A stretch of DNA of 64,000 bases from IMG/VR virus record IMGVR_UViG_3300035212_002004, positions 1 to 64,000 of that record; one strand, written 5' to 3'. Both the position numbers and the translations under genes were made by a program. This stretch comes from a virus. This document shows positions 29,317 through 48,175 of this stretch, piece by piece (positions within the stretch are counted from its first letter, which is position 1; each line of letters opens with the position of its first letter). Under the pieces are notes generated by a model. The model saw only the letters and a program-made list of their open reading frames with translations. It searched no databases and was not told the origin of the DNA.

Positions 29317-30036
29317 TTATTTTACAAATTCTATTGTATTTTTTTCTTTATCCCAATCAAATGTCATTGGCTTTTGAGTGTATTCGTAACTCTCATCCAG
29401 TACTGAAGCATTGAAGAAGTGTGTACCATCTTTAAACACATAGCCGTATCCTGAATGTATGTGACCACAGATATGAATTTTAGGTCTTAGTCTTTCAATT
29501 CTTTGTGCTAGCAACTCACATCCTAAAGCATCCCAAGGACGACCTACTACTGTATCTAAAGTTCCAAATGCTGGACCATGAGTAATAAGAATGTCTGTGT
29601 TGTCAGGAATTGCTTCCCACTTACCTGCTAATTGTATTCCATTTTTAGGAAGATTAAATGCCCAAGAATAAAATTCTGGTTGCCAAGGTGAACCGTAAAT
29701 ACGAATATTGTCTTCTGTATGATCCCCATTTGGACCATCAAAGTACATTGTTACTTGCTCGTCTTCTAGATAATCAATCATTGGGTAATCCTTCAAGTAT
29801 CCTTTTACTACTTCAGGCTCAAGTTCAAACAATCGATCATGATTACCTGCAATGAAGAATTTATCATTGTATCCTTTTATGTTTGAGAACCAAGTACAGA
29901 AATCATGGATATCATTTTTATTGTACCCTGAGTTCATTATGTCTCCTGCATGAATAAGAATATCTCCTCCAGGTAAATCTGTTAAGGGAATTAATCCATG
30001 TCTTGTATGCGTATCGCTCAAAATTGTCAGTCTCAT
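29317..30036 (-). CDS. Calcineurin-like metallophosphoesterase, 239 aa
   Basis: Metal-site motifs in order: LSDTHTRHG (DxH, residue 7), ILIHAGDIMN (GDxx, about 30), FFIAGNHDRLF (GNHD, about 62), ILITHGP (about 150) and ICGHIHSGYG (GHxH, about 193). This subgroup includes phage phosphodiesterases and phosphatases acting on nucleotides or nucleic-acid ends. It heads a run that also contains HAD and cREC genes, so a role in RNA 2',3'-phosphate removal is possible (inference). Confidence 0.92.
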   Translation of the reverse strand: MRLTILSDTHTRHGLIPLTDLPGGDILIHAGDIMNSGYNKNDIHDFCTWFSNIKGYNDKFFIAGNHDRLFELEPEVVKGYLKDYPMIDYLEDEQVTMYFDGPNGDHTEDNIRIYGSPWQPEFYSWAFNLPKNGIQLAGKWEAIPDNTDILITHGPAFGTLDTVVGRPWDALGCELLAQRIERLRPKIHICGHIHSGYGYVFKDGTHFFNASVLDESYEYTQKPMTFDWDKEKNTIEFVK

Positions 30037-30037
30037 T

Positions 30038-30883
30038 TTATTCTATTTTTAATCTCTTTTTTACTAATCTCTTTAATGCTTTTTGTTTTACAACATTGCT
30101 TCCTGGTTTAGAAACAAATTCCCAAAACTCCTCTATCGATAATACTTTTGCATTTACTATGACGTAGTACTGTGCTGTTTCAAATGTTGAGAAGTATTTT
30201 CTTTCACTATACTGTCCACATCCATCAGATGCATTAGGTGCTAAACTAATCTTAAGATTTGTATCTACAAAATAGTATGAGTATCCTTTCTTAATACCAA
30301 CTCCATCTTCTGTTGTAAAAAGTACTTTGTTTTTTTCAATATACTCTTCGGCTGCTGCTCTTGTTTCGAAGTATACATTTCGATCAGAATAAAATTTTAC
30401 TTCGGGATATGCTATAGTGTAGTGGAAGTATAGATTTTCTTTATTTACATACCATATTGTATCTCCTGCAAAAATATCTTTCCCATCGTGTGTTAAAAAG
30501 ATTGGATTTTCTACTTTAATAGCATGGGTCATATGTGAACTACCTGAATCATATCTAAACCATATTCCTTGTTTAACTAAGGCTTTACTATCATTTACAA
30601 CAATCTCAGTAATAGTTTTTATAGAACCATATTCATACACTTTTACTTTATCACCTACTGTAAATACTTCTCCATCTGAGAGACGTTTTACTGAGAGTAT
30701 TTGTGGTGGTACTATTCTTGATATCAGTATTTCATAATCTTTCTCAATTACTTCTTCCCAGTATTCAGGATAAGTTTCATAATAGATAGTTCCTTTCCAA
30801 AGATCAATTTTATTTTCACTACTAGCAATAATGCCTAAGGGTAAACTTCCTGGATATTCTTTTATAAGTCTATATTTTTTCAT
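30038..30883 (-). CDS. Hypothetical protein, 281 aa
   Basis: Beta-rich protein with several repeated short strands (e.g. SVKRLSDGEVFTVGDKVKVYEYGS, which looks like an SH3/KOW-like segment near residue 65). C-terminal basic helix. I recognise no family. One base from the phosphoesterase gene; first gene behind the promoter at 30902. Confidence 0.6.
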   Translation of the reverse strand: MKKYRLIKEYPGSLPLGIIASSENKIDLWKGTIYYETYPEYWEEVIEKDYEILISRIVPPQILSVKRLSDGEVFTVGDKVKVYEYGSIKTITEIVVNDSKALVKQGIWFRYDSGSSHMTHAIKVENPIFLTHDGKDIFAGDTIWYVNKENLYFHYTIAYPEVKFYSDRNVYFETRAAAEEYIEKNKVLFTTEDGVGIKKGYSYYFVDTNLKISLAPNASDGCGQYSERKYFSTFETAQYYVIVNAKVLSIEEFWEFVSKPGSNVVKQKALKRLVKKRLKIE

Positions 30884-30901
30884 TTTATCTTTTTATATAA
30901 C

Positions 30902-30933
30902 TAAATATACGAAATTTATTTTAAAAATCCTAA
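30902..30933 (-). promoter_or_regulatory. Class A promoter (weaker -33)
   Basis: Box TATATTTA with TTTCG before it; TTAG replaces TTTG at the -33 position. Confidence 0.55.
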
Positions 30934-31494
30934 TATTTTTTCTTTTATTCCTGATTGTTTTATTCCTTCTGACATTCTAGGAGTTTCAACAAAATTGGTC
31001 AATCCCCACTTGCTACTACCATCAGACATGTTAGGGTAGATTCCCATTTTTAAATCATCTACTGCTACCCAGTGAGTAATTTCAGGATGATCTGTTAGAA
31101 ATTGATTTATTTCTAATGCTCTTTGTTGTTCGTACATTGAACTTCTATGCCAAACAAAATCATCAACCCTATCACAACCAATATATCTTTTGGTACAAGC
31201 TATTGGAGATTTTACTATACCTTGTTCTAAATAGTATCCTTGCAATTCTTCTAGAGTAGCATGTAGTTTCCAATCTGAGGATACTACTATTTCGGCACCA
31301 GTTTCTTCTAGAATACAATTTAATACCTTAATTGCTTTTTTATCAAAGTCATCAAACCTATAGTAAACAGGAGCATTAGTATCGCTTAATTCTTCTGGGT
31401 TGAGTTTTTTATACTCTTTCCATTTTTTGGTTCTTCCACCCCAGTTGTTATCTAAGCAAATTACTCCATCATTATCCAAGAATATTACTTTCAT
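30916..31494 (-). CDS. HAD-like phosphatase domain, 192 aa
   Basis: Start set at MKVIFLDNDGVICLD, which is HAD motif I in the form DxDGV. Motif II VVSSDWK follows near residue 77, and VAVDDLKMG near 155 is the acidic motif IV. This resembles the short HAD family grouped with RNA-repair systems by Burroughs and Aravind; that placement is from memory. It overlaps the cREC gene by 4 nt, so the two are translated together. Confidence 0.75.
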   Translation of the reverse strand: MKVIFLDNDGVICLDNNWGGRTKKWKEYKKLNPEELSDTNAPVYYRFDDFDKKAIKVLNCILEETGAEIVVSSDWKLHATLEELQGYYLEQGIVKSPIACTKRYIGCDRVDDFVWHRSSMYEQQRALEINQFLTDHPEITHWVAVDDLKMGIYPNMSDGSSKWGLTNFVETPRMSEGIKQSGIKEKILGFLK

Positions 31495-31898
31495 ACTGTA
31501 TGTTCTATTTGTACTCTTACACAATTCTGAGGTAATCTGTGGATATGTCTGTAGTTGTTTATGTACCCCATCATGTTGCCACTACCGACTGCATTTGCAG
31601 AATGTACTACAACATCAACAACACAAGCTCCATCCAACCATTGATTGACCAACCATTTTGTGCAATCCATTCCAGTCTTCTCTGTAATATTATCATAGTT
31701 TAAAGTATAGTTGTAATATACATTTTTATGCCATTCAGCCATTGCTGTATCTCCTAAATCGTGATCTAGAGAGATTACATCTATGTTTTCCAATCCAATG
31801 TAAGTGACTGTATCAACAAATTGTTCGTAGTTTCTTACTACGGTCCAAGATGGATCAACAGGTGTTCTTACATCGTCTAAGTATATTTTCTTTTTCAT
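31491..31898 (-). CDS. Cyclic-phosphate-processing receiver-like protein (cREC)
   Basis: 135 aa from MKKKIYLDDVRTPVDPSW. YLDDVRTP at the first strand and VISLDHDLGDTAMAEW (about 47-62) are the hallmarks of the receiver-like family predicted to process 2',3'-cyclic phosphates on RNA ends; TGMDCTKWLV and VVVHSANAVG complete the fold. Overlaps the HAD phosphatase gene by 4 nt. Suggested role: preparing cut RNA ends before kinase and ligase steps. Confidence 0.75.
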   Translation of the reverse strand: MKKKIYLDDVRTPVDPSWTVVRNYEQFVDTVTYIGLENIDVISLDHDLGDTAMAEWHKNVYYNYTLNYDNITEKTGMDCTKWLVNQWLDGACVVDVVVHSANAVGSGNMMGYINNYRHIHRLPQNCVRVQIEHTV

Positions 31899-31899
31899 C

Positions 31900-32154
31900 T
31901 TATTTCTTTTTAAATTGTTCAAACCATTTAGCAATACTATGAGGTGTTCCTGAAGATGAATTTATATCTCGTGAAGAAAATTCCATAAGTAACTTAAACA
32001 CTTCTTCCTCACTATAACTTTTTTCTTGTTGCCATTTAGCACCTTCAATCCATTTTTCTCTGAAAACTTCTCCTATATCATCATATATTTCACTTTCATA
32101 TCCATCATTTGGGTATATTTTATTTGATGCTTCTTCAAGTGTTTCTTGTTTCAT
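31900..32154 (-). CDS. Small protein with repeated C-terminal module, 84 aa
   Basis: Almost entirely composed of the module KQETLEEA...W-IEGAKWQQEKSYSEEEV...KWFEQFKKK that also ends the 313-aa protein at 32243-33184. The DNA is nearly identical there (last ~30 nt identical), so this is a recent local duplication. A related end is seen at 38677-38988. Function unknown. Confidence 0.6.
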   Translation of the reverse strand: MKQETLEEASNKIYPNDGYESEIYDDIGEVFREKWIEGAKWQQEKSYSEEEVFKLLMEFSSRDINSSSGTPHSIAKWFEQFKKK

Positions 32155-32155
32155 C

Positions 32156-32239
32156 TTATTTCTTTTTAAATTTATTTTCCACTAATAAGGTTATTATAAC
32201 ACAAATTATAAACCAAAAAACCATAAACTTAATATCCAT
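32156..32239 (-). CDS. Membrane microprotein, 27 aa
   Basis: Hand-found: MDIKFMVFWFIICVIITLLVENKFKKK, one membrane span plus a basic tail. Start lies after AAATAAGAT and the stop 1 nt before the next ATG, copying the gene junctions on either side. Reality rests on this packing and composition. Confidence 0.5.
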   Translation of the reverse strand: MDIKFMVFWFIICVIITLLVENKFKKK

Positions 32240-32242
32240 ATC

Positions 32243-33184
32243 TTATTTCTTTTTAAATTGTTCAAACCATTTATTATCTTCAAATGCATTAGACGAAATT
32301 CCAAACCAATTTAATCTTAGTTTTAATATTTCCTTAACTTCTTCCTCACTATAACTTCTTTCTTGTTGCCATTTAGCACCCGCAATAAATCCATTTTTTG
32401 TAGTTACTAATAAAGGTTGTTTAGCATAATTTAAAGCAACTTCTTCAAGTGTTTCTTGTTTAGCATTTGCAATAAATCTTTCCACTATTTTATCTTGTTT
32501 AGGTAATGAGTCGTAAGCCATTTTAGCATTCATTTGCATAATTTTTGTTATCATACATTCTTGTTTAGGTTCTTCTTCTATTCCTTTACAAGTTTTTGTT
32601 AAATAACCAAGACATTCATCTGTACAAGTGCAAGTTTCTTCTGTTGGTTTAAAATCTTCCACAGTTCCTCCATTTTTAAAATGTTGAACAAAATGTTCTT
32701 TACCTTTAATAGATTTTTCTAGTCCTTCTTTTATTTTTGAATAATCTTTTGGAATGATTATTTTGTATTCCCAACCTTTTTTTATATCAAAAAAATTCTT
32801 AGGTTCGTAGATAGTATCAACCTCTTCACAACTTGGATTCTTAACAAACCATTCTAAAAATTCATCATCAATAGATTGTACACCATCTTTGATTAAGTCT
32901 TGGTCTGTTGTTAGGATTATTTTTTTAAACCATCTATTTACATAGGTATTAGATTCCCCAATCCATTTAGTTATTTTATTAAAATTAGTATCGTAATACC
33001 ATTCATTTTCTTCTCCTTCTTTAATTTCTTCATCAGAAGTTATGTAGATGTGTTGGTTTTGAGTTCCACTGCCAAAATTCTCTGTAAACTCTGGATTATT
33101 AGAAGTAATACCTAATTTGTTATTTGATTTAATTAAGTAAATTCTACTTGGTTTGTCTGTTGGCAATACGTGTAAGTTTTTCAT
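32243..33184 (-). CDS. Hypothetical protein, 313 aa
   Basis: N-terminal part (residues 1-180) mixed alpha/beta; a Cys-rich patch TCTCTDECLGYLTKTC near 185-200 might bind metal; the last 70 residues are the duplicated module shared with 31900-32154. No family recognised. First gene behind the class A promoter at 33214-33245. Confidence 0.6.
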   Translation of the reverse strand: MKNLHVLPTDKPSRIYLIKSNNKLGITSNNPEFTENFGSGTQNQHIYITSDEEIKEGEENEWYYDTNFNKITKWIGESNTYVNRWFKKIILTTDQDLIKDGVQSIDDEFLEWFVKNPSCEEVDTIYEPKNFFDIKKGWEYKIIIPKDYSKIKEGLEKSIKGKEHFVQHFKNGGTVEDFKPTEETCTCTDECLGYLTKTCKGIEEEPKQECMITKIMQMNAKMAYDSLPKQDKIVERFIANAKQETLEEVALNYAKQPLLVTTKNGFIAGAKWQQERSYSEEEVKEILKLRLNWFGISSNAFEDNKWFEQFKKK

Positions 33185-33213
33185 AACCTTTTATGTTTTT
33201 AAATTTCTATACC

Positions 33214-33245
33214 TAAATATACGAATAATATTTCAATATACCAAA
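33214..33245 (-). promoter_or_regulatory. Class A promoter (TTTG-N20-TATATTTA)
   Basis: Perfect TTTG, 20 nt, TATATTTA. Drives the operon starting at 33184 that contains cREC and the HAD gene. Confidence 0.75.
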
Positions 33246-33265
33246 CTTTTTTTAATTTATTTCTA

Positions 33266-33883
33266 CTAGTCCCACCAACCCTCGATATTCTGTTCCATTA
33301 TTTTAAACAACAGCTTCCTTGCCCTATCGTGATTCAAATGACCTATATTCATAGCAATTATTCTTTTTATATCAGATTCATCCCTACCGTCTAGTGTAAA
33401 CACTCCTTCTCCTTTCATTATTTTTTTATATACTAAAGGGTACTTTTTAAAGTACTCATCATACTTTTCCCATACCTCTTCTGAGTTGTACTGAGAAGAT
33501 CCTGGTCTGTCTTCACAATCTGTAAACCATACTCTGTCTTTGCAGTAGTCCATGTACTCCATTGCATAATCTTCTTCCTGTACTTTCTTAATTAAAGAGA
33601 TACAAAGTCTCATTCTTTTAGCATCAAGCTGTGCTCGGGTATGTCTGTCTTTACTACCAATGTAATTGGCTTGTGCTTCCAATTTATGTTGTAGTATTTC
33701 AAAGATGTAATGACCGTCCCAATCTCTATCCTTCCAGATAATTGGAAACCAGTACCAAATATTTATTACTCCTTGTTTAAAGTACTTGTGATAGTACTTT
33801 CCGTCATGTGCCCACCAAAGGTATATTCTTCTGAATAAGTTTGGTTTAGGTCTGTTGTTTAAGTCTTCGAAAAAATCTTGCAT
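33266..33883 (-). CDS. Hypothetical protein, 205 aa
   Basis: Trp/Tyr/His-rich (FRRIYLWWAHDGKYYHKYF, IWYWFPIIWKDRDWDGHY), with charged helices later. Similar aromatic proteins occur in T4-like phages without a known role. Not membrane-spanning by appearance. Followed after 2 nt by nothing related; precedes a one-span membrane gene. Confidence 0.55.
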   Translation of the reverse strand: MQDFFEDLNNRPKPNLFRRIYLWWAHDGKYYHKYFKQGVINIWYWFPIIWKDRDWDGHYIFEILQHKLEAQANYIGSKDRHTRAQLDAKRMRLCISLIKKVQEEDYAMEYMDYCKDRVWFTDCEDRPGSSQYNSEEVWEKYDEYFKKYPLVYKKIMKGEGVFTLDGRDESDIKRIIAMNIGHLNHDRARKLLFKIMEQNIEGWWD

Positions 33884-33885
33884 AA

Positions 33886-34068
33886 TTATTGTATAAAGTT
33901 TTTTAATAATATTACCATAATTACAATTTCTATTAAATTAAGAATAAATATCCCTACTCCTACTTCACTATCCATTGTTTTTCTAAATGCCCAATTTAAC
34001 AAGTGCGTTAAAACTGTGTGTAATACAAATATTAGTATTACGATTGATAAAATTGATACTGTTACCAT
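33886..34068 (-). CDS. Membrane protein, 60 aa
   Basis: Two hydrophobic spans, residues 3-20 (VSILSIVILIFVLHTVLTHLL) and 38-57 (GVGIFILNLIEIVIMVILL). No family. Sits directly downstream of the glucosaminidase gene and could be a lysis or holin-like accessory, but this is only position. Confidence 0.55.
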   Translation of the reverse strand: MVTVSILSIVILIFVLHTVLTHLLNWAFRKTMDSEVGVGIFILNLIEIVIMVILLKNFIQ

Positions 34069-34070
34069 AG

Positions 34071-34634
34071 TTAATTGAATTTATTTTTTAATTGTCTTTT
34101 GCTAATGATTGCTTTTAATCTCTGAACGTATGTCGGATCCTCAGCATAATTTTGTTTTAAGTACTCAAAGTATTCTCCTTCAGTTCTAAGATCGTGAAGG
34201 TAGGTTGAATAAAATAAAGCATAGTCAATAACTGATTCTTGCCATGTTTCATAAAATGCATGACCTCTACTTGTTCCTTTTGCTAAATTGGATCTTAGCT
34301 TAGCTTCCTTCATTCCAAATAGATTATTATTCTCTAAAAAGATACCTGACTTGTAGTGTCCTGTCTCTTGGTATGATTGAGCTAAAATAATGTAAGGGAA
34401 TTTAAAATTTAACTGTTTAATTTTCTCAATTAGCTTTGGTTCTGAGAATCCATTATGCTCTCTAATGACGATTAGTTTTTCTTCTTGAGAAAGATTTTCT
34501 ACCTTATTTGCAGGATTGGAAGTAAATCCAAATACTAATAATAATCCTACTGCTGCTCCTAAACCTATTAATGATTTATTACTAAGTTTTACTGTTTCGA
34601 AGTCTAATGTGTGTTGATTGAATTTATAATACAT
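34071..34634 (-). CDS. GH73-type N-acetylglucosaminidase with membrane anchor
   Basis: 187 aa. One span near residues 24-43 (LIGLGAAVGLLLVFGF) then the FlgJ/Bax-like catalytic part: FPYIILAQSYQETGHYKS (catalytic Glu in QETG, about 92), NNLFGMKEA and SVIDYALFYSTYL. It cleaves peptidoglycan glycan strands. It is transcribed from an early-type promoter and is separate from the lysis cassette at 55-57 kb, so it may modify the host wall during infection rather than lyse it. Confidence 0.85.
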   Translation of the reverse strand: MYYKFNQHTLDFETVKLSNKSLIGLGAAVGLLLVFGFTSNPANKVENLSQEEKLIVIREHNGFSEPKLIEKIKQLNFKFPYIILAQSYQETGHYKSGIFLENNNLFGMKEAKLRSNLAKGTSRGHAFYETWQESVIDYALFYSTYLHDLRTEGEYFEYLKQNYAEDPTYVQRLKAIISKRQLKNKFN

Positions 34635-34659
34635 AACCTTTTTTTAAATTTGTAATACC

Positions 34660-34691
34660 TAAATATACGAACTTTATTCTAATTCTCCAAC
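34660..34691 (-). promoter_or_regulatory. Class A promoter for the glucosaminidase gene
   Basis: GTTG, 20 nt, TATATTTA. It lies inside the 3' end of the small gene 34679-34849. Confidence 0.72.
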
Positions 34692-34849
34692 TTTTTAACG
34701 CGAGAAGTTTTTAAACAATACAGCATATCATCTCCTATGTGTTCGTACTCTAAACCGTTGATTTCTACTGTTTTTCCGTGTTTCTTAGACGCTCTAATAT
34801 TTTTTAGTATTGGAGATATGTCTTCACAATATGTTCTTTTTCCTCTCAT
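34679..34849 (-). CDS. Small hypothetical protein, 56 aa
   Basis: Hand-found: begins MRGKRTYCEDISPILKN and ends SRVKKLEN. Basic, soluble, with codon use like its neighbours and a 5-nt gap to the gene upstream. No other frame explains this stretch. Function unknown. Confidence 0.6.
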   Translation of the reverse strand: MRGKRTYCEDISPILKNIRASKKHGKTVEINGLEYEHIGDDMLYCLKTSRVKKLEN

Positions 34850-34854
34850 AACAG

Positions 34855-35091
34855 TTATTTTATATTTGATTCTGGGTAGGCATTTAGGATTGAATTGCAG
34901 TCAACATATTCGTCACAATATTCAGAACCTGTATTGCCAGAATATTCATATTTAATTTTTGCTTTTTCACTTGCTTCTTTTAAAGCTGCTTCTACATGAA
35001 GTTTTGCAAATTCAATCAAAGCTTTATGGTGATTGTCTGGACCATATGTATGTTTAAATTTCATAAAGAATTTTTCTGCTGTTGGTATCAT
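34855..35091 (-). CDS. Hypothetical protein, 78 aa
   Basis: MIPTAEKFFMKFKHTYGPDNHHKALIEFAKLHVEAALKEASEKAK: helical, with a pattern common in phage proteins of unknown function. First gene behind the class A promoter at 35120; AAAGGTT lies directly before the ATG. Confidence 0.6.
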   Translation of the reverse strand: MIPTAEKFFMKFKHTYGPDNHHKALIEFAKLHVEAALKEASEKAKIKYEYSGNTGSEYCDEYVDCNSILNAYPESNIK

Positions 35092-35119
35092 AACCTTTGT
35101 TTTATTTGTTTTTAATACT

Positions 35120-35151
35120 TAAATATACGAAAAAAAGCCTGCTGAAGCAAG
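35120..35151 (-). promoter_or_regulatory. Class A promoter overlapping a terminator
   Basis: CTTG, 20 nt, TATATTTA; the CTTG belongs to the hairpin that ends the HNH gene transcript. Confidence 0.7.
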
Positions 35152-35152
35152 C
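35137..35152 (-). terminator. Intrinsic terminator after the 35169 HNH gene
   Basis: GCTTGC-TTCA-GCAGGC followed by TTTTTTT on the minus strand. Confidence 0.7.
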
Positions 35153-35168
35153 CTTTTATCAATTATTT

Positions 35169-35861
35169 TTAAATTATTTTGTCTCTTTTTTTAATATTAT
35201 CTAGATGCCACATAGGTCTTAAATTAGAATAATGATTTAATTTTTTAACTTCTTCTAAGGTATTAGCTGAACTAATAGGGGTAAAGTGATCTATAGACCA
35301 ATCTGTTTCTACTTTATTACCATAGTTACTCCAATTCATTCCTTCAGTAAATTGATTTTCTAAATGTTGTTTGAAATCTTCCCAACTGTCTAATCCTATT
35401 ATATTTAAAGTAGGAAGGTCTTTAGTAGAATTAATTTCTCTAATCCTCATAGAGATAGAAGCTCTCATATTTTGAGATAATTTAAATACAGGATCATTTT
35501 GTTTACGAACTTTCATATACTCATTATCTCTTTGTTTAATATGAGGTTGAGCATTATAAAGCTTACGTTTATCTTTATTTTCAATATTATATTGAGTCTG
35601 TTTTAACTTTCTATAATCTTGATCTTTTAAATAAGCAACCTTATTCCTTTCAGAATATGTTTCTTTATTATTAAAATAACGTTGTTGTTGTTTTTCTTTT
35701 ATTAAACTTTGATTTTTTGTTTGAAAGGTTTCAACTTGGAATTTCCAACAAATTTTACAAACAGGCATTACACCATATTTGCATCCTTCTTTCTTATAAA
35801 ATTCTAGGGTAGATTTTTCCTGCTCGCATTGGGAGCATTTCTTTTGAATATGTATCGTCAT
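35169..35861 (-). CDS. HNH homing endonuclease with N-terminal zinc ribbon, 230 aa
   Basis: KKCSQCEQEKSTLEFY...VCKICWKF gives two CxxC knuckles at residues 8-42. The nuclease end is TDWSIDHFTPISSANTLEEVKKLNHYSNLRPMWHLDNIKKRDK: DH, then N, then DN-x-x-K, as in HNH. Paralogue of 46027-46725 and 58853-59524. Inserted between the RNA ligase gene and a small gene. Confidence 0.9.
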   Translation of the reverse strand: MTIHIQKKCSQCEQEKSTLEFYKKEGCKYGVMPVCKICWKFQVETFQTKNQSLIKEKQQQRYFNNKETYSERNKVAYLKDQDYRKLKQTQYNIENKDKRKLYNAQPHIKQRDNEYMKVRKQNDPVFKLSQNMRASISMRIREINSTKDLPTLNIIGLDSWEDFKQHLENQFTEGMNWSNYGNKVETDWSIDHFTPISSANTLEEVKKLNHYSNLRPMWHLDNIKKRDKII

Positions 35862-35880
35862 AATAAATTATTTGGCGATA

Positions 35881-35888
35881 ATAAATAT
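35881..35888 (-). promoter_or_regulatory. Class B octamer ATATTTAT before HNH gene
   Basis: TAATATTTATTATC, 19 nt before the ATG at 35861 and just after the RNA-ligase terminator hairpin. Confidence 0.5.
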
Positions 35889-35903
35889 TATAAAAGCATA
35901 GAA

Positions 35904-35923
35904 GGGCGCAATAAGTTGCGCCC
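35904..35923 (-). terminator. Hairpin after the RNA ligase gene
   Basis: GGGCGCAA-CTTA-TTGCGCCC, 8 bp, then TTCTATGCTTTT. GC-rich against the local background; the U-run is broken. Confidence 0.65.
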
Positions 35924-35931
35924 ATTTATGA

Positions 35932-37080
35932 CTAATGACTATCCCCTATGTCGTGTTTCTCACCATAAATAAGATAATCGCTATTGATTACCTTTGCTAC
36001 TTTTTTTCTATCACCTGAACTGTGTTTGATTACAATTCCTTCATGTGGTACTTTTGTTCCTTCAATGAAGTTGTTAAATACAAACTTATCCTGTACTTCT
36101 TGATTCCAAAGTCCAAAATAAAGTACTTCAATATAAGGTAAGTCTAGTGAATGAAATGCACCGTAAGTACCAGCTGGTGAATTATAGTCACCTTTCATAG
36201 TTGTATCAAATCCTATAAATTTAATATCATCCAATCCATAGTCATAGTTCTTTTGAATACCTGCTCCATAAATTTCTCCATAGATTACTATACCACTTCC
36301 AATGTCTACAATATTAGCTGTATCTTTAACATATTTCCAAAGCTTAGCTTTAATATCATACTTCTCAGCAATTGTTTTCCAAACATCTTCAGAATAAAAT
36401 CCTTGAGAGTCACTTCCTTTCTCACAGTTATGTGAACCGTAAATGTATTCGTAGTTAATCCACTTATCAGCTAATCTAAAGAATTTTTTTACTTTATCCC
36501 AGAATGACAATTTAGTCTTTTTTACAATACCATATCTAGCATTTGTACCATGAATTTTACGAGAAATCTCTACTGTATCTTCTTCTGTAAACATTCCACC
36601 TACGTTTTTAAGGTTAGGGAATTTATAGTAGATATGGAAGTTCTGATTGTCTCTCCATTTAATTTTTCTACCTGAAGCAAGTTGAATTTGTTTAACTGGT
36701 GGTTCGTATTTGGTAATACCTAACAACCCCATACAGTCAGTTCCTTCTTTTATATCCCAGTCACCCATTGTGACTTTACCCTTAAGGTAAGTCATTGGAA
36801 TGATTAAACATTCAGAATAAACTCCTCTTAACTTTACAGTTCTTACTCTGGTACCTTTTCTTAGGTAGTTTGCAACTCCCATCTTTTCAGATAGTTTCTC
36901 AGGAATTACTGCATCAGTAGTTGCAATGACAGTTAAGTCACCTTCTTTGAATTCACCTTTTTTAGTGATTGCATTCCATCCACCTGCAATTACTAATTCG
37001 ATGTTATCAGCTCCTTCGATTGCTCTTACTTCATTTATTTTTGCTACAAAACAGCAGCTGTTGTTATTTTCCATTTTCAA
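35932..37080 (-). CDS. RNA ligase, DRB0094/Rnl5 family
   Basis: 382 aa. N-terminal OB-like region (residues 1-130, CCFVAKINEVRAIEGADNIELV) matches the extra domain of this family, and EISRKIHGTNARYG near residue 175 is nucleotidyltransferase motif I with the adenylated Lys (K-x-H/D-G-T). IVIYGEIYGAGIQKNYDYG (motif IIIa/IV region) and EGIVIKH (motif IV, about 348) followed by KVAKVIN-type motif V complete the site. It joins RNA ends by ATP-dependent adenylation. Near a kinase and cyclic-phosphate enzymes, so likely RNA (tRNA) repair. Confidence 0.9.
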   Translation of the reverse strand: MKMENNNSCCFVAKINEVRAIEGADNIELVIAGGWNAITKKGEFKEGDLTVIATTDAVIPEKLSEKMGVANYLRKGTRVRTVKLRGVYSECLIIPMTYLKGKVTMGDWDIKEGTDCMGLLGITKYEPPVKQIQLASGRKIKWRDNQNFHIYYKFPNLKNVGGMFTEEDTVEISRKIHGTNARYGIVKKTKLSFWDKVKKFFRLADKWINYEYIYGSHNCEKGSDSQGFYSEDVWKTIAEKYDIKAKLWKYVKDTANIVDIGSGIVIYGEIYGAGIQKNYDYGLDDIKFIGFDTTMKGDYNSPAGTYGAFHSLDLPYIEVLYFGLWNQEVQDKFVFNNFIEGTKVPHEGIVIKHSSGDRKKVAKVINSDYLIYGEKHDIGDSH

Positions 37081-37381
37081 ATTCTTCTTTTAGTTTTAAA
37101 TAACTTTCATATTTCCTTTGCTTCATTTCTTCAGCACTTTTATTATTTCTTGCAATTCTTCTATTAAACTCTTCATCGGTCTCCTCAACTATTCTGGTAA
37201 TCTGATTATGCCAGTACCCATGATAGTCAAAATTGTCATCATCAACCCATCCTGAGTAGATTACATCCTCGTCTTCTAATTGTAAATTTTTAATGTCTGA
37301 CCATTTCATTGGAGCATTGTTATATCCATGGAATATTTGTTTTTCTAGTTCAATTTTCTTTGGTGATTTATTATTTTCCAT
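37064..37381 (-). CDS. Hypothetical protein, 105 aa
   Basis: Trp/Asp-rich middle (WSDIKNLQLEDEDVIYSGWVDDDNFDYHGYW) followed by a charged coil. No family recognised. Overlaps the RNA ligase start by 17 nt, so translation is coupled to it. Confidence 0.55.
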   Translation of the reverse strand: MENNKSPKKIELEKQIFHGYNNAPMKWSDIKNLQLEDEDVIYSGWVDDDNFDYHGYWHNQITRIVEETDEEFNRRIARNNKSAEEMKQRKYESYLKLKEEFENGK

Positions 37382-37625
37382 CTTTATGTTCTTGTATTAC
37401 TTTTATTACTATTTCTTTTTTCTCATCATTGAAAACATCTTCGAGTTTAATTTCTTTTTCTGCAAAATACATAAACTCTAGACATTTATAAACACTCATT
37501 CCACTTTTACAACAATCTCTGATATATCCTTCGTATTTAGTAAAATCCTCATCAGTGTACTTGTAATTGTCTTCTGTACGTCTGTCTTTTAGTCTTTGTA
37601 AGTAATCTTCAAATGCTTCTTTCAT
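37371..37625 (-). CDS. Hypothetical protein, 84 aa
   Basis: Charged helical small protein (MKEAFEDYLQRLKDRRTEDNYKYT). No family recognised. Overlaps its downstream neighbour by 11 nt. Confidence 0.55.
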   Translation of the reverse strand: MKEAFEDYLQRLKDRRTEDNYKYTDEDFTKYEGYIRDCCKSGMSVYKCLEFMYFAEKEIKLEDVFNDEKKEIVIKVIQEHKDGK

Positions 37626-37632
37626 AACTTTA

Positions 37633-37938
37633 TTAATATAAATCTTCTGAGTATAGTTCTATTGAATTGTAATTTAGTTTTCCTCCATTTTTGACCCAAA
37701 TCTTAGCACCTTCTTCTCTATCAACAAATCTATTCTTATTTGTTATAAATCCCTGTATATGTTCCCCATGTTCATGTAATCTCTTTCCTGTAAGTGATAC
37801 TATAGAAGAAATACAATGACCATGTCTAAACCCACTGATAACAACTCCTCCAGGTGTGTTGATAGGTCTGTGAGTTGCTCTTTCTGCTTCTATTAGCCAT
37901 ATTGCAGCACATAGTATTTGTTCTTCGTTTTGTTTCAT
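37633..37938 (-). CDS. Hypothetical protein, 101 aa
   Basis: ILCAAIWLIEAERATHRPINTPGGVVISGFRHGHCISSI followed by NRFVDREEGAKIW. It resembles short phage proteins annotated as unknown that carry an RHxxC-type motif; no function can be given. Two bases from the next gene. Confidence 0.6.
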   Translation of the reverse strand: MKQNEEQILCAAIWLIEAERATHRPINTPGGVVISGFRHGHCISSIVSLTGKRLHEHGEHIQGFITNKNRFVDREEGAKIWVKNGGKLNYNSIELYSEDLY

Positions 37939-37940
37939 AA

Positions 37941-38243
37941 CTAAATAGTTTTAGCAAATTTCCAATAATCGATTGACCTGAATTCTTCCTCAGTATCGGC
38001 ATCGGTTTTTATATTATTTGATGTTACATAGGTTCCGTTTGTTACCGCAATTACATTTCTTTTTTTCCAATTTTTTCCATCCATACTAACCATCATTGGT
38101 ATATTAACTAATTCTGGAATTGTTTCTTTTTTAGGTTTACCAATTACCATATTGATAGTACCTTTTGGTATTCCTCCTAAATACTCTTTTGGTACTTTAA
38201 ATGCATTCAACATATACTCCTTAGCTTCTTCAGATGCTATCAT
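37941..38243 (-). CDS. Hypothetical protein, 100 aa
   Basis: MIASEEAKEYMLNAFKVPKEYLGG... ; the segment SMDGKNWKKRNVIAVTNGTYV suggests a beta domain. First gene behind a class A promoter and with AAAGGTT before its ATG; leads the operon that ends with the RNA ligase. Confidence 0.6.
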   Translation of the reverse strand: MIASEEAKEYMLNAFKVPKEYLGGIPKGTINMVIGKPKKETIPELVNIPMMVSMDGKNWKKRNVIAVTNGTYVTSNNIKTDADTEEEFRSIDYWKFAKTI

Positions 38244-38266
38244 AACCTTTGTTTTAAATTTATACC

Positions 38267-38298
38267 TAAATATACGAAATTTATTTCGATTCTACAAG
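38267..38298 (-). promoter_or_regulatory. Class A promoter for the RNA ligase operon
   Basis: CTTG, 20 nt, TATATTTA. Overlaps the last codons of the kinase gene. Confidence 0.72.
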
Positions 38299-38675
38299 CA
38301 AATTTCAAATCTATTTTTCATTTTATCTAAAGTTTCTTGTGGCACACCGTGTTCATTTATTCCGCCATGCCTGTTCTCCACTATTAGTGAAAATACTTTA
38401 TAACCGTATTTTTCAGCTAATTGGTAATAAGGCTCTAATTCTTTTTCCTGAGTAAATGTGTTTGATACTACTACCTTTTCCGTACTATTTACCATCCAAA
38501 CTTTTACTGCATTCTGACACCAAGCATGAGCTTCCTTTAATTTAGTAGGGTCAAATTTATATTCACCCATATCCATAAAATACTTATCAGCCTCCATATG
38601 TGATCCACCTAATGACTTTGCTAATGTTGTTTTACCTGATCCAGGAACTCCACGAAGGAGAAATAACTCTTTCAT
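38292..38675 (-). CDS. P-loop kinase, polynucleotide-kinase-like, 127 aa
   Basis: MKELFLLRGVPGSGKTTLAKSLGG begins at the Walker A, as in the kinase half of T4 Pnkp and AAA_33 proteins. HMEADKYFM supplies the catalytic acidic residue, VVSNTFTQEKELEPYYQLAEKYGYKVFSL the second-strand region. A 5'-OH RNA/DNA kinase role fits the RNA ligase and cyclic-phosphate enzymes around it. Start at 38675 preferred over an upstream Met inside the previous gene. Confidence 0.82.
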   Translation of the reverse strand: MKELFLLRGVPGSGKTTLAKSLGGSHMEADKYFMDMGEYKFDPTKLKEAHAWCQNAVKVWMVNSTEKVVVSNTFTQEKELEPYYQLAEKYGYKVFSLIVENRHGGINEHGVPQETLDKMKNRFEICL

Positions 38676-38676
38676 A

Positions 38677-38988
38677 TTATTTATTTTTAAATTGTTCAAT
38701 TACAGTATTTTCGTGTTCTCTAAATTCAGTAGCTCTATATCTCATCAAAGTAATTGTTTCTTGAATAGCTTTTCTCATATCTTCTTCACTATACATTCTT
38801 TCTTTTTCTTTTACTTCATCTGATTTAAGTTCATCTTCAAAAGCATAATGCATTTCACCTTCTCCATCAACAACCTCAATAATTTTATGTTCTGTGTATA
38901 GAGGATGTTCTCCTTTTTCATAAACTTTACCTGTTAGTGTTACTGCAATAGGTTGCATCATTGCATAGGGTCTGAATTGATATTTCAT
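38677..38988 (-). CDS. Hypothetical protein, 103 aa
   Basis: MKYQFRPYAMMQPIAVTLTGKVY... then a charged C-terminal helix with RMYSEEDMRKAIQ and ending VIEQFKNK, which is related to the end module of 31900 and 32243. No function known. One base between its start region and the phosphoesterase gene. Confidence 0.55.
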   Translation of the reverse strand: MKYQFRPYAMMQPIAVTLTGKVYEKGEHPLYTEHKIIEVVDGEGEMHYAFEDELKSDEVKEKERMYSEEDMRKAIQETITLMRYRATEFREHENTVIEQFKNK

Positions 38989-38989
38989 A

Positions 38990-39640
38990 TTAAATTCTCT
39001 TTTCGTGATGATCCTTTGGTAAGGCTAATTTTTTAATTGGTTGATCTTTCATTATCATAAGGATCTGTCCTAGTGATAAAGGCTCTAAACCATTTCCATC
39101 TACTCCAACATCCATTGCTTTACCCTCTGCTATTCGTAGGTGTGAAGGTAAATGAACGTGACCATGCAAGTGAATTACTCCTTGGTTCATATCATGCCAT
39201 GATGCGATTGGATAGTGCATACAAATGAAAATATGCTTATCTGTTAACGACTTATTAATTGGCTTTACAACTTCCAATCTCAAGTAGTTTTGTACTGAAG
39301 AGAATAGTTTTTGTACCCCTTCCCTATCTCTTTCGATGTGGTGATCGTGATTACCAAGTACCAAGTGAATGTTTTTACAAAGTATTCTACTTCTGAATTC
39401 TTGTATTCTGTCAAATCCTCCAAATGACCAGTCTCCTAAGTGGATTAAGATATCATCCTCACCAACCATGTTGTTGATGTTGTTGACTAAGGCACTGTTC
39501 ATATGATCAAGTGACTTAAATTCTCTTGTCAAGTTTGAAGCACCTACCCACTTAGTGGTTGCACTGCAGATTGAAGAATGGCAATAGTGAGTATCACTTG
39601 TAAAAAATAATCTTTGTCCTTTTTCTAATACAATTTTCAT
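38990..39640 (-). CDS. Metallophosphoesterase, 216 aa
   Basis: Start set at MKIVLEKGQRLFFTSDTHY, after the promoter at 39659. DxH in SDTHYCH (residue 15), GDxx in ILIHLGDWSFGG (about 79), GNHDHH (about 107), CMHYPIASW (about 153) and HGHVHLPS (about 173) are all present. Phosphodiesterase/phosphatase; in the same operon as the kinase, so it may remove or reshape terminal phosphates during RNA repair. Confidence 0.9.
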   Translation of the reverse strand: MKIVLEKGQRLFFTSDTHYCHSSICSATTKWVGASNLTREFKSLDHMNSALVNNINNMVGEDDILIHLGDWSFGGFDRIQEFRSRILCKNIHLVLGNHDHHIERDREGVQKLFSSVQNYLRLEVVKPINKSLTDKHIFICMHYPIASWHDMNQGVIHLHGHVHLPSHLRIAEGKAMDVGVDGNGLEPLSLGQILMIMKDQPIKKLALPKDHHEKRI

Positions 39641-39658: not shown

Positions 39659-39690
39659 TAAATATACGAAATATTTTTTATAAATCCAAA
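39659..39690 (-). promoter_or_regulatory. Class A promoter for the phosphoesterase-kinase operon
   Basis: TTTG, 20 nt, TATATTTA; placed within the 3' end of the mobile endonuclease gene, so it was either carried in or the endonuclease extended over it. Confidence 0.72.
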
Positions 39691-44383: not shown

Positions 44384-44413
44384 AACTTTTATTTTTTATT
44401 GGATAAAATATTG

Positions 44414-44485
44414 TGGTCTCGGGGAATTACGATATCCCAGCCTCTTTCTTATGAGGAAATTGCTCTACCTTTGAGCTACGAGACC
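44414..44485 (-). tRNA. tRNA with CAT anticodon (Met type)
   Basis: Acceptor GGTCTCG/CGAGACC, anticodon loop CTCATAA. T-loop reads ATCGTAA: A54-T58 in place of T54-A58, but C56 and the D-loop GG are kept. Confidence 0.8.
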
Positions 44486-44492
44486 AATTAGT

Positions 44493-44561
44493 TGCGGATT
44501 CAGGACTCGAACCTGGCCTCTGGGTTATGAGCCCGGAATGCTACCAATTACACCAAACCGC
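44493..44561 (-). tRNA. tRNA with CAT anticodon (second)
   Basis: Anticodon arm GGG-CTCATAA-CCC, T-arm CCAGGTTCGAGTCCTG. One mismatch in the acceptor. Whether it is initiator, elongator Met or a lysidine-type Ile tRNA is open. Confidence 0.75.
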
Positions 44562-44663
44562 GATGTATGCTTTAATGAAAAGAGGTAAGCTACTTCAGTT
44601 ATCTGCGTTTACTGAGTATTTAAAGCCGTCATTGGCAAAGTGGCTACTTACTTATTCATTTTG

Positions 44664-44734
44664 CGGTCTAGAACGGTAACGCTCCGTCTACTCAACAGTG
44701 ACAGTGTTGGATGATACTTCTTCACTACTAGACC
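44664..44734 (-). tRNA. tRNA-Asp (GTC)
   Basis: Acceptor GGTCTAG/CTAGACC, anticodon arm CAACA-CTGTCAC-TGTTG, discriminator G as in Asp tRNAs. T-arm GACGG-AGCGTTA-CCGTT and D-loop AGAAGTA are non-canonical but match those of Lys and Gln tRNAs below. Confidence 0.75.
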
Positions 44735-44741
44735 TTTTTGG

Positions 44742-44813
44742 TGGAGCTACCGAGATTCGAACTCGGAATAATAGAATGCAAATCTATCGTGATGCCAATT
44801 TCACTATAGCCCC
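44742..44813 (-). tRNA. tRNA-Ala (TGC)
   Basis: Acceptor GGGGCTA/TAGCTCC with G-U pairs, anticodon arm ATAGA-TTTGCAT-TCTAT, canonical T-loop TTCGAAT. Confidence 0.88.
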
Positions 44814-44818
44814 TTTTG

Positions 44819-44890
44819 TAGCCCTGCCGGGAGTCGAACCCGACTTTTATGGATGAAAACCATATGTCCTAACCGATAGACGACAGGGCC
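44819..44890 (-). tRNA. tRNA-Glu (TTC)
   Basis: Acceptor GGCCCTG/CAGGGCT, anticodon arm TATGG-TTTTCAT-CCATA, D-loop with GG, T-loop TTCGACT. Confidence 0.9.
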
Positions 44891-44891
44891 G

Positions 44892-44966
44892 TGGAGCAGA
44901 TGCGGAGAATCGAACTCCGATCTTCTGGTTGGAAGCCAAAAGTAATAACCATTATACGACATCTGC
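44892..44966 (-). tRNA. tRNA-Gly (TCC), CCA encoded
   Basis: Acceptor GCAGATG/CATCTGC, anticodon loop CTTCCAA, T-loop TTCGATT. The gene ends TCCA, so CCA follows the discriminator in the DNA; most others here lack it. Confidence 0.9.
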
Positions 44967-44972
44967 ATTTTG

Positions 44973-45046
44973 AGGTTCTTGTCAGGATCGAACTGACTCT
45001 ATTCAGCGTTACAAATGCTGTGCACCACCACTTATGCGTAAGAACC
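44973..45046 (-). tRNA. tRNA-Thr (TGT)
   Basis: Acceptor GGTTCTT/AAGAACC, anticodon region CAGCA-TTTGTAA-CGCTG, T-arm GTCAGTTCGATCCTGAC. Confidence 0.87.
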
Positions 45047-45052
45047 AAGTAA

Positions 45053-45119
45053 ATTACAGCCGGTTTTCGTATCCGTTCTCCTACTGCCAAGCAGGTGCTT
45101 TGCTATAAGCTAGCTGTAA
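45053..45119 (-). tRNA. Degenerate tRNA-like element
   Basis: Acceptor TTACAGC/GCTGTAA and D-stem GCTT/AAGC are good; anticodon arm CCTGC-TTGG CA-GTAGG leaves a 6-nt loop and the T-arm has only 3 pairs. Anticodon not assigned (GGC possible). Confidence 0.5.
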
Positions 45120-45128
45120 CTTTTTTAT

Positions 45129-45194
45129 GTAGGCGACTAGAACTCCAGTCCTTCTGTCCAATTAAGGAACTCATATCCGGTAACCCGGTCCTAC
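45129..45194 (-). tRNA. Degenerate tRNA-like element
   Basis: Ends GTAGG/CCTAC pair, a CCGG-GTTA-CCGG hairpin sits at the D position, and GACT/AGTC at the T position. Anticodon loop 6 nt (TTAATT). Not assignable. Confidence 0.4.
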
Positions 45195-45206
45195 TATATT
45201 CTACTG

Positions 45207-45286
45207 TACCCAAGGGGGGAGTCGAACCCCCAAGCTTACGCCACGGCTTCTAAGACCGCTGTGTCTACCAGTTCCACCACTCGGGC
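45207..45286 (-). tRNA. tRNA-Leu (TAG)
   Basis: Acceptor GCCCGAG/CTTGGGT, anticodon arm GCGGT-CTTAGAA-GCCGT, long variable arm (GGCGTAAGCTT) expected for Leu, T-loop TTCGACT. Confidence 0.92.
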
Positions 45287-45469
45287 ATTTACCGCATGTG
45301 CGGTCACTTATCAATCGGTAGCTCCCTCTTGATGTCCATCTGTGGGTGTAACACATTTGGTAGAGGGTCGAACCTTAAATATCGTATCATGAAGCATTTT
45401 TGATATTGTTGAATATGCTATATCCAACTTTCTTGCTTTTATGATTATAATTTCTTTATCTTTCATACT

Positions 45470-45501
45470 TAAATATACGAACTATATTTTTACTATCCTA
45501 G
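45470..45501 (-). promoter_or_regulatory. Class A promoter for the 44.4-45.3 kb tRNA block
   Basis: Box TATATTTA with TTCG before it; -33 reads CTAG, so weaker. The 182 nt between it and the first tRNA hold no convincing gene. Confidence 0.55.
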
Positions 45502-45524
45502 CTTTTTTTAATTTACTTTTAATC

Positions 45525-45596
45525 TTAATTGCCATCATTTATTTTAATTCCAAAAAATATAAAGACTACAGCCACAATTATAAAACATACTATCAT
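45525..45596 (-). CDS. Possible membrane microprotein, 23 aa
   Basis: MIVCFIIVAVVFIFFGIKINDGN: one hydrophobic span between the tRNA-Cys gene and the class A promoter. No clear start site. Kept at low confidence because similar one-span peptides occur at 25078 and 32156. Confidence 0.35.
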   Translation of the reverse strand: MIVCFIIVAVVFIFFGIKINDGN

Positions 45597-45610
45597 AATT
45601 TATTTTTTTG

Positions 45611-45683
45611 AGGGACTATAAAGAATCGAACTTTACAATCTATTCGTTTGCTGCGAATAAGCTTAACCATCAGCCTTAGTCCC
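45611..45683 (-). tRNA. tRNA-Cys (GCA) with A33
   Basis: Acceptor GGGACTA/TAGTCCC, anticodon arm ATTCG-CAGCAAA-CGAAT, discriminator T as in Cys tRNAs, T-loop TTCGATT. The universal T before the anticodon is A here. Confidence 0.8.
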
Positions 45684-45688
45684 ATTTA

Positions 45689-45756
45689 TCACCTAGCCTG
45701 ACCTTCCAGACAGTACAAGTCAGTATTAATTTCACGTGCTGTTTTGTAGTAGGTGA
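45689..45756 (-). tRNA. Degenerate tRNA-like element
   Basis: Perfect 7-bp acceptor TCACCTA/TAGGTGA; a central CTGAC-TTGTACT-GTCTG arm would give GTA (Tyr). D and T arms are poor. Confidence 0.4.
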
Positions 45757-45762
45757 TTTATT

Positions 45763-45990
45763 TTATTTATTCAGATCTTGTATAATAGGTCCTAAATCTT
45801 TTACAGGTATCTTACAATCCTCTTGACCTTCTCCTTCTGAGTTTCTCCACATATAGTTGTAAACTGCTTTTGTTTTTCTTTCCATCTCAAATGTAAAGTA
45901 TAGGTTTGGAGTTTCTAATTCATATACATTCCAATCATCTCCTCTTCCGTCAGTATATTGATTTACTAATTTAAAATCTGTTATTTTCAT
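45763..45990 (-). CDS. Hypothetical protein, 75 aa
   Basis: MKITDFKLVNQYTDGRGDDWNVYELETPNLYFTFEMERKTKAVYN: beta-rich small protein. No family recognised. Single gene behind a class A promoter, followed by tRNA genes that it may be co-transcribed with. Confidence 0.55.
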   Translation of the reverse strand: MKITDFKLVNQYTDGRGDDWNVYELETPNLYFTFEMERKTKAVYNYMWRNSEGEGQEDCKIPVKDLGPIIQDLNK

Positions 45991-46006
45991 ATTTCTTTCT
46001 TATACT

Positions 46007-46038
46007 TTAATATACGAACTATATTTCTAATATCCAAC
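46007..46038 (-). promoter_or_regulatory. Class A promoter (GTTG-N20-TATATTAA)
   Basis: GTTG, 20 nt, TATATTAA; the -33 lies inside the 3' end of the HNH gene. Near-identical to 43890-43921. Confidence 0.72.
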
Positions 46039-46725: not shown

Positions 46726-46832
46726 ATTAAAATAAAAGGAGAAATTAAAGAAAACACATGGTACGTGCTAAGCTCTAAAATCTCCTATAATGTTTTTATT
46801 GAACAGTACCATTGTTCATTTAATATAAATAT
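46726..46832 (-). ncRNA. Pseudoknotted leader RNA of HNH gene (copy 3)
   Basis: Same plan with different sequence: octamer (46825-46832), ATGGTAC (46806-46812), stem AGGAGA/TCTCCT (46781-46786 with 46738-46743), loop holding GTACCAT (46758-46764) that pairs with the first strand, 7 bp. No primary-sequence match to copies 1 and 2 in the loop. Confidence 0.65.
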
Positions 46833-46862
46833 CACAAAATATAGGAAACCTTAATATATTTT

Positions 46863-47369: not shown

Positions 47370-47402
47370 GATTTTAATTTTTAAATGAAACAATTTATTT
47401 TG

Positions 47403-47640: not shown

Positions 47641-47646
47641 ATTTTG

Positions 47647-48025: not shown

Positions 48026-48033
48026 CATGTTAG

Positions 48034-48102: not shown

Positions 48103-48108
48103 AATTAA

Positions 48109-48171: not shown

Positions 48172-48175
48172 TTTG

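What the first reader, a model, noticed from the sequence alone, without database searches (positions are those of the whole stretch)
29317..39640. RNA-repair-type enzyme set beside a 20-amino-acid tRNA array
Within 10 kb lie an RNA ligase of the DRB0094/Rnl5 type, a P-loop polynucleotide-kinase-like protein, a receiver-like protein of the cyclic-phosphate-processing family, a HAD phosphatase translated with it, and two metallophosphoesterases. Together these can open 2',3'-cyclic phosphates, phosphorylate 5' ends and seal breaks. T4 uses Pnkp and Rnl1 to mend tRNA cut by host anticodon nucleases. Here the set is larger and is placed a few kb from the tRNA genes. Interaction between them is inferred.
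Basis: partly seen in the sequence, partly recalled or inferred. Interest (0 to 1): 0.82.

Follow-up and report, generated by a model that had tools for sequence, protein, structure and literature searches.

The report
Phage toolkit for mending cut RNA
A virus related to Flavobacterium phages carries a clustered set of enzymes that should clean up and rejoin broken RNA, probably so that bacterial toxins that cut tRNA cannot stop infection; the kind of toolkit was predicted before, but this version uses a different joining enzyme and shows which parts really belong together.

Summary
Six enzymes lie at 29317-39640 on the minus strand. Profile searches confirm an Rnl5-architecture RNA ligase, a small T4-Pnkp-like kinase, a cREC protein, a Swiss-army-knife HAD overlapping it (ATGA), and two calcineurin-type phosphoesterases. 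Twenty tRNA genes for 17 amino acids are well supported at 44-50 kb; Lys, Trp and Tyr copies are degenerate candidates.

Comparison with about 300 related virus loci and 40 long records sharpens the interpretation. The core is MPE2 + kinase + ligase: 71 of 79 distinct kinase genes have an RNA ligase within 3 kb. In sister phages, and in seven cultured phages of proteobacteria inspected, the same kinase sits beside another ligase, mostly of T4 Rnl1 type. So the ligase is swapped and its partners kept. The three proteins map onto parts of a fused phage kinase-MPE-ligase family (MPE part weakly). cREC and HAD are looser accessories; MPE1 is probably separate.

The link to the tRNA array is lineage-specific: ligase presence does not track tRNA number, and two records have the whole set with no tRNA gene. 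Best reading: an early-expressed RNA end-healing and sealing cassette against host ribotoxins, probably mainly on tRNA. New variant of a kind already predicted (Iyer et al. 2021, 2022). No activity has been tested.

The parts
35932..37074 (-). RNA ligase, OB + nucleotidyltransferase architecture of the Rnl5 (NgrRnl/DRB0094) type, 380 aa, ATG start; invariant motif I Lys173 (RKIHGTN)
   Evidence: PF09414, PF21189, phrog_968; NgrRnl E 2.8e-48 by family profile
38292..38675 (-). small P-loop polynucleotide-kinase-like protein, 127 aa; P-loop GVPGSGKTT, invariant Asp30
   Evidence: AAA_33, phrog_2071, phrog_505; fold match to T4 Pnkp E 2.4e-6
38990..39640 (-). MPE2, calcineurin-type phosphoesterase (phrog_547), all metal-binding motifs invariant
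   Evidence: PF00149, phrog_547 9e-41; family alignment
31491..31898 (-). cREC, cyclic-phosphate-processing receiver-like protein; Asp8/Asp9, Asp45-His46-Asp47 and Ser100 conserved
   Evidence: PF20274 6e-21, phrog_1479; AF2 pLDDT 97; BFVD cREC matches
30916..31494 (-). HAD_SAK_2 ('Swiss army knife') phosphatase, start codon overlaps cREC stop (ATGA)
   Evidence: PF18143 6e-19; DxD, SS, DD motifs invariant
29317..30036 (-). MPE1, second metallophosphoesterase (phrog_1649; PADLOC PDC-S10); probably not part of the core
39661..39670 (-). promoter-like motif TTCGTATATT, 20 nt before the MPE2 ATG (unit MPE2-hp103-kinase)
38269..38278 (-). promoter-like motif, 25 nt before the ATG of hp100 (unit hp100-hp101-hp84-hp105-ligase)
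33216..33225 (-). promoter-like motif, 31 nt before the ATG of hp313 (unit hp313-hp84b-cREC-HAD)
30904..30913 (-). promoter-like motif, 20 nt before the ATG of hp281 (unit hp281-MPE1)
44413..49909 (-). tRNA array: 18 ARAGORN genes plus Gln and Thr found by Rfam; degenerate Lys, Trp and Tyr candidates

Best explanation
The phage encodes a split, Pnkp-like RNA repair cassette. A host ribonuclease toxin cuts RNA, most likely tRNA, leaving a 2',3'-cyclic phosphate and a 5'-OH. MPE2, helped by the cREC-HAD pair, converts the cyclic end to OH; the small kinase phosphorylates the 5'-OH; the Rnl5-type ligase adenylylates the 5'-phosphate and seals the break. The genes lie in several short units under what looks like the phage's early promoter. 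Shown here by computation: the families, intact catalytic residues in most, the linkage, the replacement of the ligase by a T4 Rnl1-type enzyme with partners kept, and the shared promoter-like motif. Inferred: every enzymatic step, the division of labour between cREC, HAD and MPE2, tRNA as the main substrate, and defence as the reason.
For: Family and fold assignments. Linkage: of 79 distinct kinase genes with 3 kb on both sides, 71 have an RNA ligase within 3 kb: 48 Rnl5-type only, 21 Rnl1-type only, 2 both. In long records after removing 5 near-duplicates, kinase-MPE2 within 5 kb in 22/27 (1.5 expected if placed at random) and ligase-kinase in 16/19 (1.07 expected). Internal control: within 3 kb of the ligase the kinase is kept in 48/65 loci and MPE2 in 32/65, while the endolysin gene is kept in 7 and the HNH gene adjacent to the ligase in 1. 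Order differs between phages. Swap: in L168 the order is cREC, MPE2, kinase, then a ligase matching PF09511 RNA_lig_T4_1 1.2e-19. In seven of seven cultured phages inspected the kinase lies beside, or within two small genes of, an annotated RNA ligase (6 of the 7 ligases match PF09511), with a phrog_547 phosphoesterase within a few genes in the five where one was scanned. Fused family phrog_8238 (737 positions) matches the kinase at 1-108 (1.3e-6), MPE2 at 193-260 (0.005, weak) and the Rnl1-type ligase at 436-679 (1.2e-15). The same promoter-like motif precedes all the units.
Against: No activity tested. The kinase has Phe33 where T4 Pnkp has Arg38 (alignment; the role of Arg38 is from memory), so a 5'-OH RNA substrate is not assured. 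The ligase motif I is KxHG, not KxDG as in NgrRnl. Rnl5 enzymes characterised so far prefer nicks in duplexes (from memory), not open anticodon loops. cREC occurs in phages with no detected ligase. tRNA number does not track the ligase. The random-placement expectation ignores relatedness of the phages, and some records are incomplete.
Confidence: 0.7

Rival explanations
1. cREC, HAD and one or both phosphoesterases act on small molecules (ADP-ribose 1''-2'' cyclic phosphate or cyclic-nucleotide defence signals), and only the kinase-ligase pair touches RNA.
For: cREC is predicted for either substrate (PMC7824862, PMC9503650); cREC is present without a detected ligase in immuto, G004 and G009; MPE1 matches the PADLOC candidate PDC-S10 4e-68.
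Against: Sirtuin found in only 1 of 40 records although cREC is in 35, so the NAD-linked context of other phages is missing; cREC lies within 5 kb of the ligase in 10/19 and of the kinase in 13/25 records.
Confidence: 0.2
2. The kinase, phosphoesterase and ligase heal and seal DNA or DNA-RNA junctions during replication rather than RNA breaks.
For: T4 Pnkp and Rnl5-type ligases accept some DNA ends (established knowledge, from memory); the region is rich in HNH endonucleases, and in L168 a pyrimidine-dimer-glycosylase-like gene sits in the cluster.
Against: The partner ligase in sister and proteobacterial phages is mostly the Rnl1 type (PF09511), a family known for RNA sealing; cREC and HAD_SAK families are tied to RNA ends in the literature.
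Confidence: 0.1
3. The set serves only the neighbouring phage tRNAs (processing or repairing that array).
For: In this lineage the tRNA array directly precedes MPE2-kinase-ligase in many relatives, on the same strand.
Against: Ligase presence independent of tRNA number (p 0.53); G022 and G038 have the whole set and no tRNA gene found; tRNA within 3 kb in 8/65 ligase loci.
Confidence: 0.07
4. Coincidental crowding of accessory genes in an early region, without functional link.
For: Many unrelated small genes share the same promoter-like motif; related phages share gene order by descent.
Against: Non-repair neighbours turn over while kinase, MPE2 and ligase stay together; order is shuffled with membership kept; the ligase is replaced by another family in the same place; the association recurs in phages of proteobacteria.
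Confidence: 0.08

Closest known systems
Phage RNA-repair neighbourhoods predicted by Iyer et al. 2021 (PMC7824862) and 2022 (PMC9503650), notably the Escherichia phage V5 type: T4-like tRNA ligase, cREC, nucleotide kinase, sometimes calcineurin-like phosphoesterase
   Same: Same kinase and phosphoesterase families (phrog_2071, phrog_547) beside an RNA ligase; cREC; stand-alone Swiss-army-knife HAD described as the phosphatase
   Different: Here the ligase is of Rnl5 architecture, not T4-like; no sirtuin, RlaP or RtcB in the window's record; hosts probably Bacteroidota
Bacterial Pnkp of the Pnkp/Hen1 RNA repair system (Clostridium thermocellum)
   Same: Kinase + calcineurin-type phosphatase + ligase; kinase fold match to CthPnkp E 1.1e-5
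   Different: Three separate genes; ligase of another family; no Hen1 seen (not searched for)
T4 Pnkp + Rnl1 tRNA repair
   Same: Kinase of the T4 Pnkp fold; sister phages use a T4 Rnl1-family ligase (PF09511)
   Different: T4's phosphatase is a HAD domain fused to the kinase; here phosphatases are separate proteins
Rnl5 ligases (Naegleria gruberi Rnl; Deinococcus DRB0094)
   Same: N-terminal OB domain and nucleotidyltransferase domain, Lys nucleophile aligned
   Different: Motif I KxHG instead of KxDG; an insertion of about 40 residues
Flavobacterium phage vB_FspM_immuto (MW353176), closest cultured phage found
   Same: MPE2, glucosaminidase, cREC (81% identical) and MPE1 in the same order after a few tRNA genes
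   Different: No ligase, kinase or HAD detected in its 160 kb; four annotated tRNAs

Membership tests
Rnl5-type RNA ligase | N-terminal OB domain plus C-terminal nucleotidyltransferase domain | tested here: met
   PF21189 + PF09414; NgrRnl profile match over both parts, E 2.8e-48
Rnl5-type RNA ligase | Motif I KxDG with Lys nucleophile | tested here: inconclusive
   Lys173 and Gly176 invariant and aligned to NgrRnl, but KxHG in this clade
Rnl5-type RNA ligase | Manganese-dependent nick sealing with 3'-OH RNA | not testable with these tools
   -
T4 Pnkp-type 5'-kinase | Kinase fold and P-loop | tested here: met
   Foldseek T4 Pnkp E 2.4e-6, probability 1.0; Gly12, Gly14, Lys15, Thr17 invariant
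T4 Pnkp-type 5'-kinase | Acceptor-site Asp35 and Arg38 | tested here: inconclusive
   Asp30 aligns with Asp35; Phe33 in place of Arg38
Phage kinase-phosphoesterase-ligase cassette (V5 type) | phrog_2071 kinase and phrog_547 phosphoesterase next to an RNA ligase | tested here: met
   linkage
Phage kinase-phosphoesterase-ligase cassette (V5 type) | Sirtuin in the neighbourhood | tested here: not met
   No SIR2 match in G000; 1 of 40 records
cREC | PF20274 profile, receiver-like fold, conserved Asp residues | tested here: met
   6e-21; BFVD cREC matches E 4e-7; PDB receiver matches only weak, E 0.06-1; Asp8/Asp9/Asp45/Asp47 conserved
cREC | Hydrolysis of 2',3'-cyclic phosphate | not testable with these tools
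   Prediction only in the literature
HAD_SAK_2 phosphatase | PF18143 profile and HAD catalytic motifs | tested here: met
   6e-19; Asp6-x-Asp8, Ser71-Ser72, Asp145-Asp146 invariant
Bacterial Pnkp/Hen1 | Three domains in one polypeptide | tested here: not met
   Separate genes 35932-39640
Bacterial Pnkp/Hen1 | Hen1 2'-O-methyltransferase | not tested
   No dedicated search was made
RtcB-type repair | RtcB ligase | tested here: not met
   No PF01139 match in 40 records

The most novel reading that the evidence does not exclude
A modular phage 'split Pnkp', in which kinase and calcineurin-type phosphoesterase are the fixed core and the ligase is exchanged between families (Rnl5, Rnl1), with a translationally coupled cREC-HAD pair as a new RNA-end healing unit in which a receiver-type fold acts as a cyclic phosphodiesterase.
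Probability: 0.3. Interest if true: 0.75.

Novelty: new variant of a known kind. Interest (0 to 1): 0.52.

Why it matters
Phage-encoded tRNAs and RNA repair are leading ideas for how phages defeat tRNA-cutting immunity, but outside T4 the parts lists are mostly guesses. The comparative data separate core from accessories, show ligase exchange with partners kept, and show that repair genes and tRNA genes are gained independently, so the two strategies can be tested apart. The cREC-HAD pair gives a small, defined object for testing an enzymatic receiver-like domain.

Tried and rejected
Tight coupling of the set to the tRNA array: rejected as a general rule. Sirtuin/NAD-linked repair as in V5-type phages: no sirtuin in this record. 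RtcB or RlaP involvement: none in this record. MPE1 as an RNA-repair core member: weak linkage to the ligase (9/65), different family. Sequence search of cREC and HAD against solved structures gave nothing meaningful. The receiver kinship of cREC in the PDB fold search is weak. The original cREC/Swiss-army-knife paper (Burroughs and Aravind 2016) is not held, so its figures could not be compared. Host identity was not established: the closest cultured relative infects Flavobacterium, and a bacterial bin of uncultured Bacteroidetes holds a 67% identical ligase, probably phage DNA.
Full report
WHAT IS THERE. The window is bases 1-64000 of a 168,099-base virus record. Six enzyme genes lie on the minus strand at 29317-39640. 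Structure supports two. The kinase model (pLDDT 84) matches T4 polynucleotide kinase best (E 2.4e-6, probability 1.0) and the Clostridium thermocellum Pnkp kinase. The cREC model (pLDDT 97) matches other viral cREC proteins (E 4e-7) but solved receiver domains only weakly. The ligase family profile matches Naegleria gruberi RNA ligase over both domains (E 2.8e-48), so the Rnl5-type label is right, with KxHG instead of KxDG in motif I. HAD motifs and the metal-binding motifs of MPE2 are invariant in relatives. The HAD start overlaps the cREC stop as ATGA. The tRNA array begins 4.8 kb away; 20 tRNA genes for 17 amino acids are well supported, and Lys, Trp and Tyr have degenerate candidates.

THE CORE. 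I fetched 80 relatives each of cREC, ligase, kinase and HAD from viral contigs and mapped all families on them. Among 79 distinct kinase genes with at least 3 kb on both sides, 71 have an RNA ligase within 3 kb. In 40 long records, after dropping five near-duplicates, kinase and MPE2 lie within 5 kb in 22 of 27 records that have both (1.5 expected under random placement), and ligase and kinase in 16 of 19 (1.07 expected). That expectation ignores common descent, so an internal control matters more: within 3 kb of the ligase, kinase is kept in 48 of 65 loci and MPE2 in 32, whereas the endolysin gene of the same neighbourhood is kept in 7 and the HNH gene directly beside the ligase in 1. Order changes between phages while membership is kept, for example tRNA-MPE2-kinase-ligase-cREC-HAD-MPE1 in the window, kinase-MPE2-cREC-ligase-HAD in G038, and HAD-ligase-cREC-MPE2-kinase in G037.

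LIGASE EXCHANGE. Several records with kinase, MPE2 and cREC lack the Rnl5-type ligase. There a divergent PF09414 match sits beside the kinase. In L168 this gene is a T4 Rnl1-family ligase (PF09511, 1.2e-19). Of the 79 kinase genes, 48 have only the Rnl5 type nearby, 21 only the Rnl1 type, 2 both. The kinase has relatives in 616 phage records. In seven inspected (Aeromonas phiA047, Pseudomonas Pyxpy02, Escherichia LL12, Acinetobacter Aci05, Cronobacter GAP31, Vibrio Quinn, Erwinia Hena1) it lies beside, or within two small genes of, an annotated RNA ligase; six of the seven ligases match PF09511, Aci05's does not. A phrog_547 phosphoesterase lies within a few genes in the five where one was scanned. 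Finally the fused phage family phrog_8238 (737 positions) matches the kinase at 1-108, MPE2 weakly at 193-260 and the Rnl1-type ligase at 436-679. This is the domain order of bacterial Pnkp (established knowledge).

ACCESSORIES. cREC is within 5 kb of the ligase in 10 of 19 records and of HAD in 9 of 20, but it also occurs where no ligase was found: immuto, G004 and G009. HAD is absent from several records with the whole core. MPE1 is another family and seldom near the ligase (9 of 65), so I would not count it in the set.

THE tRNA QUESTION. Nearness to the tRNA array is real in the window's lineage, but tRNA number does not differ between records with and without the ligase (p 0.53), and G022 and G038 have the whole set with no tRNA gene found. 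Repair genes and tRNA genes therefore look like separate acquisitions. This argues against a function restricted to phage tRNAs and is compatible with repair of host tRNA.

EXPRESSION. TTCGTATATT occurs 14 times exactly in the window, always on the minus strand, and in 11 of the 14 cases an ATG of an open frame follows 18-31 nucleotides later. It heads the units of MPE2-kinase, ligase, cREC-HAD and MPE1 and recurs in the tRNA region. A longer form occurs 29 times in the whole record, all on one strand, 23 of them in 151-166 kb. I read it as the phage's early promoter; this is inference.

MECHANISM AND NOVELTY. Metal-independent ribotoxins leave a 2',3'-cyclic phosphate and a 5'-OH; ATP-dependent ligases need OH and 5'-phosphate. 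MPE2 (with cREC-HAD as a second route), kinase and ligase supply these steps. Iyer et al. (PMC7824862, PMC9503650) already predicted such sets in phages, including cREC, stand-alone HAD and, in V5-type phages, a nucleotide kinase, T4-like ligase and calcineurin-like phosphoesterase. What is new here is the Rnl5-type ligase in the place of Rnl1, the measured core/accessory split, and the independence from tRNA number. None of the enzymatic steps has been tested, and Phe33 in place of T4 Arg38 leaves the kinase's substrate open.

Noticed in passing
window 433-51112 (minus strand), e.g. 39661-39670, 38269-38278: Promoter-like motif TTGG-N15-TTCGTATATTTAAGTAT; 29 exact copies of TTCGTATATTNNARTAT in the 168-kb record, all on one strand, 23 of them at 151.3-166.1 kb.
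   Followed up: partly
window 46866-47393, 49329-49850, 35172-35861, 39681-40616: HNH / endonuclease-VII-like and DUF723-type genes inside and near the tRNA array and the cassette; the one beside the ligase is rarely kept in relatives.
   Followed up: no
window 29317-30036: MPE1 matches the PADLOC candidate defence protein PDC-S10 (4e-68); a phage copy of a defence-candidate phosphoesterase.
   Followed up: no
window 47403-47474, 48177-48258, 48799-48870, 49035-49110, 50641-50726, 50894-50998: Degenerate or unusual tRNA-like genes scoring below standard cut-offs or missed by ARAGORN, among them Trp, Tyr, Lys and possible Ser(GCU) candidates.
   Followed up: partly
window 52294-53166: QueC homologue; immuto carries a queuosine-type 7-deazaguanine set with a DNA transglycosylase, so this phage may modify its DNA.
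   Followed up: no
G022 (record of L161), 42119-42523: The only one of the 40 records with an RlaP nucleotidyltransferase; it carries the full set with no tRNA gene found.
   Followed up: no
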